A stretch of DNA of 64,000 bases, from the NCBI GenBank assembly GCA_947379895.1, contig CANCPA010000004.1, forward strand, positions 1 to 64,000. Direction: 5' to 3'. The DNA comes from Chitinophagaceae bacterium (GTDB taxonomy: Bacteria > Bacteroidota > Bacteroidia > Chitinophagales > Chitinophagaceae). How positions within the stretch are numbered: position 1 is the first letter of the stretch; the number at the start of each line of letters is the position of its first letter. The notes beneath the pieces are model-generated. The model did not search any database. It worked only from the letters and a program-made list of their open reading frames with translations, and was not told the DNA's origin. The position numbers and the translations under genes were made by a program. Below are positions 4,642 to 61,349 of the stretch, in pieces.

Positions 4642-4872
4642 ATGTACACTACAGTAAGAGGCATATACGAAAACGGACAAATTTCACTTTATGAACAACC
4701 GCCTATCGAATCGCCCACAGAAGTATTAGTTACTTTCACAACAGAAATTCCAGCAACTACTGAGATTAAACCCAAAAAAGAAAGAAAGGGTGGGTGGGGT
4801 AAAGATTATATTCTTTATGTTGCCCCCGACTTTGACGACCCTATTGATGACCATTTTGATGTATTCAAATAA
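4642..4872 (+). CDS. DUF2281-like antitoxin candidate
   Basis: 76 aa small ORF (MYTTVRGIYENGQISLYEQPPIESPTEVLVTF...) overlapping (TAATG) the start of a PIN-domain reading frame, a VapBC-type arrangement. Confidence 0.6.
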   Translation: MYTTVRGIYENGQISLYEQPPIESPTEVLVTFTTEIPATTEIKPKKERKGGWGKDYILYVAPDFDDPIDDHFDVFK

Positions 4873-5266
4873 TGAAACTGCTACTTGACACCCACGTTCT
4901 TTTATGGCTTGGCAAAAGCATGGATTTACTTCCATTAGCCACTGTTGCAATGATAAAGAACCCTAAAAATGACATCTTTGTAAGTTTGTGTCATTTTATG
5001 AAATAGCTATCAAACAAAACATTGACAAATTGATTATTGATAAATCAGTGTTACAATTTTACATGGACACTCTTGCCGACAATATTAAATTACTACCTAT
5101 TGCAACAACTTATCTTGCATCATTAAGTAGTTTACCAATCATGCCTAACCACAAAGACCCTTTTGATAGATTGATTATTGCTACTGCCATAACAGACAAC
5201 TTGATTATCGTAAGTATTGATAGTAAATTTGAATTATACAAGGAACTTGTAACAATAATTTGGTAA
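4872..5266 (+). pseudogene. PIN domain VapC-like toxin split by a single-nucleotide frameshift
   Basis: Frame A: MKLLLDTHVLLWLGKSMDLLPLATVAMIKNPKNDIFVSLCHFMK*. Frame B (ORF 4988-5266): SFYEIAIKQNIDKLIIDKS...LPIMPNHKDPFDRLIIATAITDNLIIVSIDSKFELY. Together they cover a PIN domain, with the shift near 4985-4995. Confidence 0.75.
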
Positions 5267-5629
5267 ATTTTTACTTCTACTTCCTCCACCGTCTTCCCAT
5301 AGTTTCGACGAAAGGAGACGCCTTATCAAAAAAGAGCTTACTTGACTTGTCCTAAAATAAATTAGCGCTTCAAAAAATAAATCAAGCATATTAAAAATAA
5401 ATGATTGCCATTCCAATAGAATCGCTAATATTTGCCTCGAAAAGCAGGATAGTTACAAAAAAACTACCTCTTTTAGCTTGCGACATACGATTAGCACAAT
5501 CATTTTTACCTACAGCTTAAAATATCAGGGCTGCGGTGACAAACTTTCTTCTTACTATTTATTGTTTCAAACGGCATCTTAGTGCTTTGGAAACTGTTTC
5601 CAGAGAAATCTCACTAATTAAATTGCTTT

Positions 5630-5866
5630 TGTATCTAGAAATTTTATAATTACATCAAAAAATTATGTATTTATATCTAGAGTTGATGCAGTTGCCACTA
5701 GAGTTAATTAGTATAACTCTAGTGTTTGTTCTCGTACCTCTAGTGTTAGTTCTTGCACCTCTAGTGTTATCTAACCTAACACTAGAGGTTACTCACTTAA
5801 CTCTAGTGTTAACTCTCCTGACTCTAGTGTTTATACGATTAACTCTAGAGTTAATTCAAATATTCC
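5630..5866. repeat. 21-bp-period palindromic repeat array 1 (core AACTCTAG(A/T)GTT)
   Basis: CTAG at 5635, then 5677, 5698, 5719, 5740, 5761, 5782, 5803, 5824, 5845: exact 21-bp steps, with one degenerate slot at 5656. 18-bp perfect palindrome ATTAACTCTAGAGTTAAT at 5838-5855. Confidence 0.95.
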
Positions 5867-5973
5867 CTCTTGAGTACTGGGAAATTAGGTTGTAATTGGT
5901 GTGTAAATGGATACACTTTTTACATTTTTGACTATTATTAGAAAAAATATTTATTAAAAAAAATGAAATTATC

Positions 5974-6642
5974 ATGTCAAAGAAAAAAAGTTGGGTTCCA
6001 CTAGGAATCTTAGTGTTTTTTGGTTTTAGCAACATTTTTGTTGCAAATGCAGTTGCAAATCAATTGGATTGGAAATTAGTCACAGGTAATGTCACTACGT
6101 TAGTGGCCTTGCAAAAGATTTATCTTGACTTTTACAAGATATCTTCCGACATTAAAAATTGTTCACCTTTAGACGCTCAAAATACAAGGGTGGCGCGAAA
6201 AAATTTCATGAAAGCCCTAAGGACTATGGGTATTCAAGAAATGAAGTTTAATGATAACATGAACGATGCAGAACGCACCTCATGTGGAGTAGTCAACAAT
6301 AGTAGTTCAAGAACTCAAGCAGTTATTGCGAATGTGGGTCCGGGTGTAAATGAAAAGGCATTAGGAGATTTGAATTTGAAGATTACATTCATTGCTCCAC
6401 AAGCCGCAACAGTACCTGAGAGTCAGGAAGCGATAAGCACTAAGTTTGGCTTTTATGCTGTAGGAGACCCAATTCCTACAGAAGCTGATTGTTTGTTGAA
6501 TGTGGTGTTGAACACAAAGTCTGGTGTTGTTGTTTTTGACGCTTCAAAAAAAGGAAAACTATTTGTAGGATATGCCCGGTATATAAACACGCGTAAGCAA
6601 TTAGGCACTGCTGCAACTACATTTTATGGTGTTGTTGCATAG
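5974..6642 (+). CDS. Hypothetical secreted protein
   Basis: 222 aa ORF with N-terminal signal-like hydrophobic segment (MSKKKSWVPLGILVFFGFSNIFVANAVA). No family recognised. Confidence 0.7.
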   Translation: MSKKKSWVPLGILVFFGFSNIFVANAVANQLDWKLVTGNVTTLVALQKIYLDFYKISSDIKNCSPLDAQNTRVARKNFMKALRTMGIQEMKFNDNMNDAERTSCGVVNNSSSRTQAVIANVGPGVNEKALGDLNLKITFIAPQAATVPESQEAISTKFGFYAVGDPIPTEADCLLNVVLNTKSGVVVFDASKKGKLFVGYARYINTRKQLGTAATTFYGVVA

Positions 6643-6694: not shown

Positions 6695-6728
6695 AAAAGC
6701 CCTTGAAGTAAATTCTTCAAGGGCTTTT
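6695..6728. terminator. Rho-independent terminator-like hairpin
   Basis: aaaagcccttgaag-taaatt-cttcaagggctttt. Confidence 0.85.
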
Positions 6729-6870
6729 ATTTTCTATCAAAACCAAATCTTTTCCTCTTTCCCTATTTAAACTCCATACCCAATCTCAATATTCATCACT
6801 CATATTTCATCACTCTTAACTAATAACTAACCACTAAACTAATATATTTGCACCTCAAGAATAGAAAAGA

Positions 6871-10151: not shown

Positions 10152-10317
10152 GTTATGAGTTGCAAGATGCAGGTTGCAAGTTTCAGGTTGCAAGTTACAG
10201 GATACAGGTTGCTAGTACTTTAACCCTGAAACTAGTAACTTGCAACTAGTAATCTGAAACCAGTAACTAGTAACTTGAAACCACAAAATTTAACATTTTA
10301 CATTTAAAATAATAACA

Positions 10318-20894: not shown

Positions 20895-20906
20895 GTTTCT
20901 GATTAA

Positions 20907-21283
20907 ATTCTAGAAAATTAGTAACCACTTATTAAGAATTTTCGAGTACTTATTCGTAATAAGTTAAAGCTTATTGCTAATTAGTAAAAGCTTATTGAAA
21001 AAAAGTATAAGCTTATCGGGAATAAGTGAGGTCTTATTGGGAATAACTGTTCGAATTTGGACAGCTGTGAGTACTTATTTTGAGTTAGAGAATACTTATT
21101 CTGAATTAGTGAGCACTTATTGCTAGTAAGTTAAAGCTTATTGCTAGTAAGTTAAAGCTTATTGCTAATTAGAGAGTTCTTATTGAGAGTTAGTTTCCAC
21201 TTAATTTGAGTTTGAAAGGACTTATCAGTAATTAGAGAGTCCTTATTGTCAGTAAGTACTCTCTAATATCATAAAAGCTTTAA
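20907..21283. repeat. 21-bp-period palindromic repeat array 2 (unit CTTATT-N3-A(A/G)TAAG + 6 bp)
   Basis: CTTATT-like half-site at 20928, 20949, 20970, 20991, 21012, 21033, [degenerate 20-bp slot], 21074, 21095, 21116, 21137, 21158, 21179, 21200, 21221, 21242; 15 recognisable units in 21-bp steps, with degenerate edge units at 20907 and 21263. Confidence 0.96.
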
Positions 21284-21360: not shown

Positions 21361-22401
21361 ATGGAATTGTTTTTACCAGTGAAAAATGAATTAAGCAGGC
21401 ACATACAATCTTGTTGTGAGGAACTGTATCATAAAATGCAACAACTTTCAGTTGCGGATATAGGATTATCTTCTCACGGTCAATTTTATTTTAATTCCCG
21501 CCACATAAAAAGGCTATTTTTTTCTATCGAATCTAGTGCACAGTTATTGTACCATAGTATTGTTTTGACCAATAAAAAGGTGGAAGATGTAGTGGTTATG
21601 GATTATGGTGCAGGGATTGGAAGTTTGTACATTTTGGCAAATATGATTGGTTGTAAACAAGTTATTTATAATGATTTATTTGAAGAGTGGAAGAATAATG
21701 GAAAGCTAATTGCCGAGGCTCTTTCTATAAATATTGATGCGTATATTTTGGGAGATATTGACGATACGCTTTTGTATCTAGAAAAAGAAAAGATTAGTTG
21801 CGATATTATTATATCCCGCAACGTAATTGAACATATTCACAAATTAGAAGATTTTTATTCGTTGATAAATAAGTTTCAACCAAATGCAATCGTTTATTCA
21901 TCTACAAGTGCAAATTTTTATAATCCTGCCGTGAACTTGAAGCATGTTTTAATGCATTTGAAGACGGAGAAAATATTTACACGAGATAGAACAAAAATCA
22001 TTTCAGAGTATACAACAAAGCTGTCTGAAAAAGAAGTATCCTTGCTTTCGCAAAAGACAAGAGGATATAATATTGAAGGGATTAAGCTGGCAGTAGATAA
22101 TTATATCTCAACTAAGACATTACCCAAAAAAGCATATACCTACACAAATGCATTTGAACCAACTTTGAATATTTGGTGTGAGAATTTATTAGTATTTAGT
22201 GTTTATAAGCAAAAATTAATTGCAGGCAACTATGACGCACAATTTAAACCTGGTTTTTGGGATACTCATTATCCCGCTGCTTGGAAAAACTTGCCTGTTA
22301 AAATATTAAATAGTATTATTAATATAGTGGGGGATTTCGGGTTTGTTCTTGCTCCATTCATCTATGTTATTGCTATTCCTAGAAAGCTAAATAATAAATA
22401 A
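21361..22401 (+). CDS. Class I SAM-dependent methyltransferase
   Basis: VVMDYGAGIGSLYILANMIGCKQVIYNDLFEEW...CDIIISRNVIEHIHKLEDF. Confidence 0.8.
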   Translation: MELFLPVKNELSRHIQSCCEELYHKMQQLSVADIGLSSHGQFYFNSRHIKRLFFSIESSAQLLYHSIVLTNKKVEDVVVMDYGAGIGSLYILANMIGCKQVIYNDLFEEWKNNGKLIAEALSINIDAYILGDIDDTLLYLEKEKISCDIIISRNVIEHIHKLEDFYSLINKFQPNAIVYSSTSANFYNPAVNLKHVLMHLKTEKIFTRDRTKIISEYTTKLSEKEVSLLSQKTRGYNIEGIKLAVDNYISTKTLPKKAYTYTNAFEPTLNIWCENLLVFSVYKQKLIAGNYDAQFKPGFWDTHYPAAWKNLPVKILNSIINIVGDFGFVLAPFIYVIAIPRKLNNK

Positions 22402-31867: not shown

Positions 31868-32043
31868 AACAGTTTATATAAAGCCGCAAATCTAAAGGCT
31901 TTTGCGTAACGTTTAAGTGCAAGTGATAAAATAAATACATCTTTCTGTTTGGGTTTTTAAAATATGCTAAAAACTTACTATAAGTACCTGGAATCTTGAA
32001 TTAAAGAAAGAATATTTTAATTTGAGTCATCTCAAGTGGGTTA

Positions 32044-32220
32044 AACCCAGATAACGCAATAGACACGTTATGAAATTCAGAAATACAAAAAAGACAAGTT
32101 TTTATACAGATTTTTTGACTGAAGACATAATAAATTACGTTGAAGTCAAATAAATCAAGTAAAAGCTTGTGTTTAAAGTAGTTGTGAATTGTAATAGTGT
32201 CCTATTGCGTAATCTGGGTT
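32044..32220. mobile_element. MITE-like element, copy 1 (~177 bp, terminal inverted repeats)
   Basis: Begins AACCCAGATAACGCAATAGACACGTTATGAAAT, ends GTGTCCTATTGCGTAATCTGGGTT (inverted). Near-identical second copy at 45176-45351. Confidence 0.88.
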
Positions 32221-32716
32221 AAACATTAATAAAAAAGATTTTTACGCCTGTTTTAGCTTTGAAATGCCATGTTTATATCTTGACAATGTTTTTTTAACTC
32301 GTTATTTTTGTTGTTATTTTTCAGACTACTATTTACGATCAATATAAATTTGTATCCGGAAGTAAAAAACATGCGAGTGAGTGTCCTAATGTTTTATGCT
32401 TAGACATTTCTTTCAGAACTAGTGAAATGTTTTTTATTAATTTCAAATTTGCTATAGGTTAGTGAGGTATTACTAGAATAACTTGAAACAGATCTATTAA
32501 GTTGTTCGAATGCATTGTTTAAGTTGTTAATATTACTTGTTTGAATGCCAATAATTATAATACAATACAATTACCTTCAAGACTCCACAAATCAAAAAAG
32601 TTATTGCGTTTCAGATTACTTATTTACACATTAGATAGAAAGTTTACAGTACTTCTGTTTGCTTTTTCAGGACTAAGTATTTATATTGCATTTATTTTCA
32701 TTTTAAAACGAACTTA

Positions 32717-44848: not shown

Positions 44849-45065
44849 GCACGTGCTTGTGAGACAGCCGCACATACGTGAATGACAGAAGCACGTGCTT
44901 TTGTCACAAAAAGAATCTTTGTAAGGTTCCCGCAGGTGCTTTTGTCGTAGCCGTACTTACGTGAATGGCTGCCGCACGTGCGGGAGTCGTGGAAGTAAGT
45001 GCTTGTGTCATTGCAGCACGTGCTTGGGTGGTTGCAGCACGTACGGGAATGGCAGCCGCATTTGA
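44849..45065. repeat. 21-bp-period palindromic repeat array 3 (core GCACGTGC)
   Basis: GCACGTGC-like core at 44849, 44870, 44891, [degenerate slot, 41-bp step], 44932, 44953, 44974, 44995, 45016, 45037, 45058. Confidence 0.95.
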
Positions 45066-45175
45066 AAAAGTAAGAATTTATATATCTTACAGGTGATAAT
45101 TGAACGAAAAAGTGATAGGGTTTTATATAAATAAATTAGAAATTTTCCCTTCTTATCCTCGAGGTAAGACTATTC

Positions 45176-45351
45176 AACCCAGATTACGCAATAGACACGT
45201 TATGAAATTTAGAAATACAAAAAAGACAAGTTTCTAAATAGATTTTTTGACTGATAACATAATAAATTACGATGAAGTAAAACAAATCAAATAAAAGCCG
45301 TGTTTGAAGTAGTTGTGAATTGTATTAGTGTCCTATTGCGTAATCTTGGTT
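45176..45351. mobile_element. MITE-like element, copy 2
   Basis: AACCCAGATTACGCAATAGACACGTTATGAAATTTAGAAATACAAAAAAGACAAG ... GTGTCCTATTGCGTAATCTTGGTT; same length and interior as 32044-32220. Confidence 0.88.
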
Positions 45352-45925
45352 CAATGCTAAATAGCCGATTCAATTACCTGATATCTGTGTGAGTAATGTA
45401 TAACACAGTCATTGCTTTATTACTAGTCAAGAGGATTTTATCATAAAGGATACTAAGTTTATCACAAAGCTACACAAGGAATTTTAATAAGTTACTACTC
45501 AAGAGGTTACCCCAAAGGCAACGAAGAAAAATCAAGGAAAACAAGGACTTTTTTGTAAATAATTGGAAGGTAAGTACCTAAAAAGTATACTGTTCTTTGT
45601 GTTTCTTGGTTCCTTTGTTCAAAACCTTGTGACCCATGTGGTAAAAATACCTGAATAGTAAAGTAATTTATAATCGATCTCTTTCATCTATTTAATTTGA
45701 AAACTTTTGGTTCCTTGTTGTTGCCTAGTTTACTTTGTTGTAAAACTTCAAGAAGTAGAAATGAGACAACAATAAATAAAAGAAATACCATTGTTTTTAG
45801 TACAAAAAGCCATGCTATAAGCCATTTATTTTACTTTCATTTAATTTTAACCCTTTATATGAACCTAATTCGTTTATTTTGTCACTCTTGTTCAAAAGCA
45901 AGTAACATATATCTAACAAGTACGA

Positions 45926-56166: not shown

Positions 56167-56378
56167 ATAATGTAAAATAGCTTAGGAAGTTGTACGTCAT
56201 AAGTTATACGTTTTAAGTTATAAGTTATACGTTTTAGGTTATACGTTTTAAGTTTAAAGCAGACTTAATTATGAAATATGCGGTTCAATTCATTATGAAT
56301 TATTACGTTTAACCTATAATCTAATACTTACTACCTAATACTTACAACTTAATTGTCATAACTCATAACTCATCGCTC

Positions 56379-60825: not shown

Positions 60826-61190
60826 AAAGGAAAGTAAAATCAGAATTAAGTGCAAAATTGATGTATGTCGTTATGAATCTGATCTGTGTGAGATTTGAAT
60901 TGATGTATGTCGTTAAGCATCTAATCCATATCGTTATGAATCTGATGGTATCGATTATTAATCAGAAGGGTGTCGTTATGTATCTAATCCATATTATTAG
61001 AAATCAGAGCCCTGCCTTTAGCCCACAAACACAGGTGAGATTTAAAAAAAGAGGTGTCGTTATGAAAAAAAGGCAACTGAGGCAATTTATTACTGAGGTG
61101 TGATTAGTTATTAATGGTAAGATGTTTAGTAAAAGCGGTACGAGGGTAGGTAAAAGGCATAGAAGATAAAGATTTAGAGGTGTCGTTTGA
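60826..61190. repeat. 21-bp-period repeat array 4 (core CATATCGTTATG / TCGTTATGNATCTGAT)
   Basis: TCGTTA-type core at 60868, 60910, 60931, 60951 (one 20 + one 22 step), 60973, 60994, 61057, 61183; degenerate TGAGATTT-type units at 60889 and 61036. All but 60951 lie on the same 21-bp grid. Confidence 0.85.
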
Positions 61191-61349
61191 GATATAAGTT
61201 ATGAGATATGAGTTTTGAAATATGAGTTATGAGTTCGTGTATTATGTTATAAGTTTTTTTGGTGGCGGATTATTTGTTAGTAACTCACCTTACACATTTT
61301 CAAAAATTACAAAAAGGTTACCACAAAGTGTGAAATAAAGGGGTTCTTG

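What the first reader, a model, noticed from the sequence alone, without database searches (positions are those of the whole stretch)
5630..5866. Array 1: CTAG-centred palindromes at exact 21-bp steps upstream of a secreted hypothetical gene
CTAG occurs at 5635, (5656 degenerate), 5677, 5698, 5719, 5740, 5761, 5782, 5803, 5824, 5845. Flanks extend the palindrome (AACTCTAGAGTT), with an 18-bp perfect palindrome ATTAACTCTAGAGTTAAT at 5838-5855. Spacer bases are variable. CTAG is generally under-represented in many bacterial genomes, so ten phased copies are notable. The array ends about 100 bp upstream of the ATG at 5974, so it could be a regulatory array for that gene.
Basis: partly seen in the sequence, partly recalled or inferred. 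Interest (0 to 1): 0.8.

Follow-up and report, generated by a model that had tools for sequence, protein, structure and literature searches.

The report
Phased 21-bp palindrome arrays, genome-wide
The phased CTAG array is real but is one of an estimated 150 or so arrays in this uncultured Chitinophagaceae genome that all repeat every 21 base pairs (two turns of the helix), mostly with unrelated palindromic sequences, and that can be swapped as whole blocks between sites in the genome, so it is probably not a private switch for the neighbouring gene.

Summary
In detail: nine CTAG-centred dyads at exact 21-bp steps (5677-5845), an in-phase outlier at 5635 and an 18-bp perfect palindrome at 5838-5855. 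In 1.93 Mb sampled from the same genome, 57 non-coding arrays have period 21 or 42 bp (about 1 per 34 kb). Sixty-two arrays fall into 42 unrelated sequence families. Most show dyad symmetry (63% at p<0.05; mirror control 6%). They lie between convergent, divergent and tandem genes in background proportions. They are non-coding and show no hairpin covariation; unit identity does not decay with distance. Upstream of the gene family at 5974, a 21/42-bp array is nearly always present (19 of 24 loci, against 5% of other genes), but its sequence differs between most orthologs. In two congeners the flanks are 97-99% identical while the array is entirely replaced by a block found elsewhere in the genus. 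At asnS and pheT, most congeners lack the array. The closest known kind is the bacterial satellites of constant length and variable sequence described by Subirana and Messeguer. New here: dyad symmetry, core/spacer structure, block relocation, and a fixed place before one gene family. Function remains inferred: most likely a two-turn DNA platform for a cooperatively loading dimeric protein.

The parts
5671..5859 (.). Array 1: nine 21-bp units with consensus ttAaCTCTAGtGTTaAttcac; core AAC(T/A)CTAG(A/T)GTT nearly fixed, spacer columns near random
5635..5638 (.). In-phase CTAG two periods before the contiguous array
5838..5855 (.). 18-bp perfect palindrome ATTAACTCTAGAGTTAAT
5399..5670 (+). Leader conserved in the ortholog of G009 (89% identity over 5399-5726); contains a block near 5517 (TTAAAATATCA) related to TGAAATATCA upstream of other family members
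5974..6642 (+). 222-aa protein ('DWIP' family, no Pfam match); homologs found only within this genus among 61 genomes
6695..6729 (+). Inverted repeat plus T-run after the gene (AAAGCCCTTGAAG...CTTCAAGGGCTTT), probable terminator
   Evidence: read
20903..21259 (.). Second 21-bp array of the same kind (CTTATTnnnAATAAG dyads; two sub-arrays about one base out of register), ending about 100 bp before the ATG at 21361
44899..45101 (.). Third 21-bp array (GCACGTGC dyads), one of six related blocks in the sampled genome, between divergent genes
60845..61082 (.). Fourth 21-bp array (TGATgtaTgTcgTTATgaATC); a 513-bp stretch containing it has an 89%-identical copy on contig C59 (L134)

Best explanation
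The array is one member of a genome-wide class of intergenic satellites whose repeat length is fixed at two helical turns (21 bp; 41-42 bp doublets) and whose sequence is free to differ between arrays. SHOWN: each array is a series of dyad-symmetric sites with a fairly fixed core and near-random spacers; arrays exist as discrete blocks of about 200-500 bp that recur at unlinked loci and can replace one another at one site; they are non-coding and indifferent to the orientation of neighbouring genes. INFERRED: the constraint acts on double-stranded DNA, most simply because dimeric proteins load side by side on one face of the helix, in the manner of an architectural or nucleoid protein; at the 5974 gene family the slot has become a fixed part of the upstream region (leader, array slot, gene), where it may insulate or modulate expression whatever the core sequence. 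How blocks move and which protein reads them are not known.
For: 48 of 77 non-coding periodic arrays have period 21, 9 have 42, 9 have 41, 2 have 22 and 9 have 14, in 1.93 Mb. 62 arrays form 42 sequence families, 30 of them singletons. Dyad symmetry: 48% of arrays p<0.05 (21-fold) and 63% (42-fold) against 0% and 6% for mirror symmetry. Core/spacer heterogeneity p<0.05 in 59% of non-alternating arrays; unit identity flat with distance (0.62 at 1 and at 9 units); ts/tv 0.65; open frames 0.63 against 0.61 expected. No preference for gene configuration. No compensatory covariation within or between neighbouring units over 96 arrays (0.0006 +/- 0.0013). Orthologous slot G004/G006: leader 97%, tail 99%, arrays 25% identical, i.e. 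at shuffled level, yet both period 21. The swapped blocks have full-length relatives (81-86% identity) at other loci, with homology ending at the array ends. Family association 19/24 against 31/618.
Against: No binding protein is identified, and 42 families would demand either very many proteins or one with little sequence specificity, which fits poorly with nearly fixed cores. About a third of the arrays show no significant dyad symmetry. Blocks have no proven terminal repeats or target-site duplications. Everything is computed on draft assemblies, where repeats are error-prone.
Confidence: 0.5

Rival explanations
1. Gene-specific operator array: a dedicated dimeric regulator binds the CTAG dyads cooperatively and controls the 5974 gene.
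For: Array upstream of 19 of 24 family members against 5% of other genes; core columns constrained while spacers vary; 21 bp puts sites on one face of the helix.
Against: Palindrome differs in most orthologs and is swapped as a block; same-format arrays lie between convergent genes at background frequency; asnS and pheT orthologs lack arrays.
Confidence: 0.15
2. Neutral satellite: slippage or unequal exchange with a natural step of two helical turns makes arrays, and palindromic seeds favour it; no function.
For: Constant length with free sequence, rapid gain and loss at orthologous sites; a 105-bp higher-order repeat in the L189 array.
Against: Neighbouring units are not more alike than distant ones, ts/tv is near random and cores are more conserved than spacers; a swapped-in array has units about 70% identical to each other although flanks diverged only 1-3%, so it was not amplified on the spot.
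Confidence: 0.2
3. Non-autonomous mobile element: the array is the body of a MITE-like unit and its dyads are binding sites for a transposase or recombinase that moves it.
For: Blocks recur at unlinked loci with 77-90% identity and sharp ends; some block starts share ATCAAAAAG and some have inverted ends, e.g. GGTTCTAATCCAT...ATGGATTAGAACC; phased 22-bp transposase sites are known from Tn7 and Mu (own knowledge).
Against: No shared terminal sequence across the 42 families, no target-site duplication demonstrated, no cognate transposase found; replacement of one array by another at the same site is not ordinary insertion.
Confidence: 0.2
4. RNA or cruciform element: the array is transcribed and folds into long hairpins, or extrudes cruciforms, and structure is what is selected.
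For: RNA fold of 5500-5973 has z = -6.2 and DNA fold of the array z = -6.4, as any palindromic repeat would.
Against: No excess of compensatory changes at any arm distance; no G-U over A-C bias in the gene strand (8 of 19); core dyads have no loop.
Confidence: 0.05
5. Coding repeat: 21 bp = 7 codons; arrays encode heptad-repeat peptides such as the 76-aa ORF 5665-5895.
For: An ATG-started 76-aa leucine-rich ORF spans array 1.
Against: Open frames are no commoner than in column-shuffled arrays and there is no three-base pattern of variability.
Confidence: 0.02

Closest known systems
Bacterial tandem repeats of constant size (20-21 or 52 nt) and variable sequence, Subirana and Messeguer (PMC8161180; J Bacteriol 2020 e00229-20, cited there, not held)
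   Same: Non-coding, fixed repeat length of two helical turns, several unrelated families per genome, patchy taxonomy, function unknown; 20-21 nt class with some 40-41 nt doublets
   Different: Here in a Chitinophagaceae genus at an estimated 150 or so per genome (their richest 21-nt Bacillus genomes list 22-30; detection methods differ); dyad symmetry, core/spacer structure, block relocation and a fixed slot before one gene family are added. The words palindrome, hairpin and symmetry do not occur in PMC8161180
REP/BIME/REPIN palindromic repeats (e.g. PMC3733652, PMC3116915)
   Same: Short intergenic palindromes, sometimes clustered
   Different: REPs share one sequence with a GTAG/CGTC tag per family across the genome; here dozens of unrelated cores and strict 21-bp tandem phasing
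Phased transposase sites at Tn7 and Mu ends (about 22 bp; own knowledge)
   Same: Two-turn phasing of repeated protein sites
   Different: Those are few, in one orientation and of one sequence, at element ends next to transposition genes
CRISPR arrays
   Same: Partly palindromic repeats separated by constant-length variable spacers
   Different: Unit of 21 bp with spacers of about 7-9 bp, no identical long repeats, nothing Cas-like beside array 1

Membership tests
Constant-size, variable-sequence bacterial satellites (20-21 nt class) | Tandem repeats with one repeat size (20-21 nt, doublets 40-42) within a genome | tested here: met
   68 of 77 non-coding arrays have period 21, 22, 41 or 42
Constant-size, variable-sequence bacterial satellites (20-21 nt class) | Sequence differs between arrays; several families per genome | tested here: met
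   42 families among 62 arrays
Constant-size, variable-sequence bacterial satellites (20-21 nt class) | Non-coding | tested here: met
Constant-size, variable-sequence bacterial satellites (20-21 nt class) | Restricted to certain taxa | tested here: met
   one core only: CTAG-N17-CTAG-N17-CTAG 31 and 14 hits in two genomes of the genus, at most 7 in the other Chitinophagaceae searched; one search finds 21-bp arrays in G007 and G012
Transcription-factor operator array | Recognition sequence conserved in orthologs of the controlled gene | tested here: not met
Transcription-factor operator array | Placed at promoters, rare between convergent genes | tested here: not met
   8 of 49 convergent, background 82 of 568 gaps
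MITE / non-autonomous element | Dispersed copies with sharp ends | tested here: met
MITE / non-autonomous element | Terminal inverted repeats common to the family | tested here: inconclusive
   ATCAAAAAG at some starts, GGTTCTAATCC inverted ends in one sub-group; array symmetry confounds the test
MITE / non-autonomous element | Target-site duplication | not tested
REP/REPIN | Common tagged palindrome and RAYT transposase | not tested
   the common-sequence part fails; RAYT was not searched
CRISPR | Repeats of 23 bp or more with unique spacers of 20 bp or more | tested here: not met
   period is 21 bp in all

The most novel reading that the evidence does not exclude
The slot upstream of the 5974 gene family is a cassette-exchange site: a dedicated process replaces the whole array by another array copied from elsewhere in the genome, keeping format (21-bp dyads, about 200 bp) and flanks but changing the sequence, so that cells or species switch which DNA-binding partner reads the slot.
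Probability: 0.12. Interest if true: 0.85.

Novelty: new variant of a known kind. Interest (0 to 1): 0.6.

Why it matters
Satellites with a fixed repeat length and free sequence have been listed in bacteria since 2020 with no known origin or function. This genus gives the question handles: the units are dyads, cores are constrained while spacers are not, whole blocks relocate, and one gene family almost always carries an array slot whose sequence can be exchanged with the flanks intact. That argues against simple in-place slippage and against gene-specific operators, and points to a test of two-turn phasing itself.

Tried and rejected
Promoter/operator reading: rejected as the general explanation by gene-configuration counts and array-free orthologs. 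Coding heptads: rejected. Hairpin/RNA/cruciform selection: no covariation, no G-U bias. Rfam gave only sub-threshold chance matches to microRNAs and RsaF. AlphaFold model of the 5974 protein had mean pLDDT 32.5, so no fold search was run. Pfam, PHROGs and viral contigs gave no relative of the protein. A roughly 190-bp repeat seen beside several arrays first looked like part of the element; it is an independent dispersed palindromic repeat mostly away from arrays.

Full report
Observation. The array is as described: CTAG at 5635 and then nine times at exactly 21 bp from 5677 to 5845, with the 18-bp palindrome at 5838-5855. The supposed degenerate unit at 5656 reads CAAA and is not a unit. In the window, ten CTAG pairs lie 21 bp apart against 0.6 expected, maximum 4 in 200 shuffles. 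In array 1 the CTAG core is nearly invariant while several spacer columns carry no more information than sampling noise. The gene at 5974 was called secreted; its homologs have hydrophilic N-termini beginning MSKN-DWIP or similar, so that label is doubtful.

It is not alone. A pattern for three phased CTAG finds 31 places in the 5.3-Mb genome against 1 for the reversed control. A sequence-blind scan of 1.93 Mb from the same genome finds 77 non-coding periodic arrays: 48 with period 21, 9 with 42, 9 with 41, 2 with 22 and 9 with 14. In a first sample of 1.13 Mb, triplet shuffles gave none (20 of the 55 stretches were shuffled). That is about one 21/42-bp array per 34 kb, or roughly 150-160 per genome by extrapolation. 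The window holds at least four such loci (5.7, 21, 45 and 61 kb). Other genomes of the genus have them too. The CTAG version is nearly absent from the other Chitinophagaceae searched; other cores were not tested outside the genus.

Anatomy. 62 arrays fall into 42 sequence families; 30 are singletons and the largest family has six. Despite unrelated sequences they share dyad symmetry: folded at 42 bp, 63% are significantly inverted-symmetric against 6% for the mirror-symmetry control; folded at 21 bp, 48% against 0%. About a quarter alternate between two half-units, giving a 42-bp period. Conservation is uneven along the unit in 59% of the non-alternating arrays; units 1 apart are no more alike than units 9 apart (0.62 in both cases); transitions are hardly enriched (ts/tv 0.65); open frames are as frequent as in column-shuffled arrays (0.63 against 0.61); and there is no three-base pattern. 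Complementarity between the two arms of a dyad, or of neighbouring units, is what any other pair of units of that array would give (difference 0.0006 +/- 0.0013 over 96 arrays). So the halves vary independently, as half-sites of a DNA-binding dimer would, and not as the arms of a selected hairpin. G-U pairs are not favoured in the gene strand.

Relation to genes. Non-coding 21/42-bp arrays with both neighbours known lie in 32 tandem, 9 divergent and 8 convergent gaps, matching the background of 355, 131 and 82. At asnS the array of this genome is absent in five congeners with the same GNAT-asnS neighbourhood and a similar promoter-like motif (TATATTTGC or close variants) next to the gene. At pheT, G006 and G007 carry 21-bp arrays of other sequences and several others carry none. 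Yet the family of the 5974 protein stands out: 19 of 24 members have a 21/42-bp array within 700 bp upstream against 31 of 618 other genes. The family has no Pfam match, no relative in viral contigs, and was found only in this genus among 61 genomes.

Turnover. The arrays of these homologs mostly have different dyads: AACTCTAGAGTT (window), GGTATACC (L008), CCCGAAA (L009), CAGAAGTTCTG (L016), GTACACGTGTAC (L015, a remote homolog), GCCGCCAATTGGCGGC (L012), GGTGTACC/GGTACACC (L011); L012 and L021, from two species, share a similar core. The sharpest case is G004 against G006: leader 217/224 and tail 68/69 identical, arrays 25% identical, which is the level of shuffled sequence, both with period 21. 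At another locus (rpoC to a TonB-type gene) the array of the same two genomes is about 96-97% identical, so slow drift cannot explain the replacement. The incoming blocks are not new: the G004 array has an 83% full-length counterpart in G006 between a flippase-like and a glycosyltransferase-like gene, and the G006 array has 81-86% counterparts in G003, G004 and G006 between two glycoside-hydrolase-like genes; homology ends at the array ends (gene names are my reading of the translations). Within the window genome, related arrays likewise recur at unlinked loci with 77-90% identity. Units of the swapped-in array are about 70% identical to each other, so it was not amplified on the spot.

Reading. 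Arrays are therefore old, internally diverged blocks that relocate or replace one another, and what stays constant is format: two-turn phasing, dyads and, before one gene family, position. The simplest cause is a DNA-level one: dimeric proteins stacking on one face of the helix. This step is inference; no protein was found. Neutral amplification explains constant length and free sequence but not core constraint, flat identity or block swaps. A mobile-element reading explains blocks but lacks target duplications and common ends. The gene-specific operator reading fails on conservation and on gene configuration, though regulation of the 5974 family by an array of any sequence remains possible.

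Known relatives. Subirana and Messeguer describe tandem repeats of constant size (20-21 or 52 nt) and variable sequence, with several families per genome and no known function, and suggest a protein polymerising on DNA, nucleoid stabilisation, or small RNAs; they note that 20-21 nt is two helical turns (PMC8161180). Their 21-nt-rich Bacillus genomes list 22-30 such repeats. The present arrays meet every feature of that class that I could test, so this is a new variant of a known kind.

Limits. The swap case rests on assemblies that should be checked with long reads.

Noticed in passing
window 45172-45362 and 32041-32223: Dispersed palindromic repeat of about 190 bp with ends AACCCAGATTACGCAATAG...CTATTGCGTAATCTGGGTT, roughly two dozen further copies in 1.93 Mb of the genome at 69-92% identity; MITE-like, sometimes beside an array.
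   Followed up: partly
L061 4236, L068 9556, L080 736, L120 9276, L135 14638, L138 13399, L140 6525, L141 15814, L142 10963: Nine non-coding arrays with period 41 bp, each with its own sequence: a second constant-size class beside 21/42.
   Followed up: partly
window 10159-10283, 56187-56353, 61188-61235; L046 8-259: Heptameric (7/14-bp) intergenic repeats; at asnS several congeners carry heptamer-type inverted repeats where this genome has the 21-bp array.
   Followed up: no
L017, L018, L019, L023, L025 upstream of the second paralog group: The array is enclosed by inverted arms GGTTCTAATCCAT...ATGGATTAGAACC, possibly element ends.
   Followed up: partly
L008, L009, L014, L020, L022 about 290-480 bp before the gene: Conserved leader block around TGAAATATCATGG followed by a short hairpin-like stretch, upstream of the array slot; might be a promoter or RNA leader.
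   Followed up: partly
L128 8760-9449, L046 1160-1855, L028 16447-17112: Further small proteins of about 220-230 aa next to arrays, weakly or not matched by the family profile (L028 E=6.5e-4, L128 E=0.14); the array association may extend to a wider superfamily.
   Followed up: partly
window 4642-5266: Probable degraded toxin-antitoxin-like pair (small ORF followed by PIN-like fragments) upstream of array 1, read by eye only.
   Followed up: no
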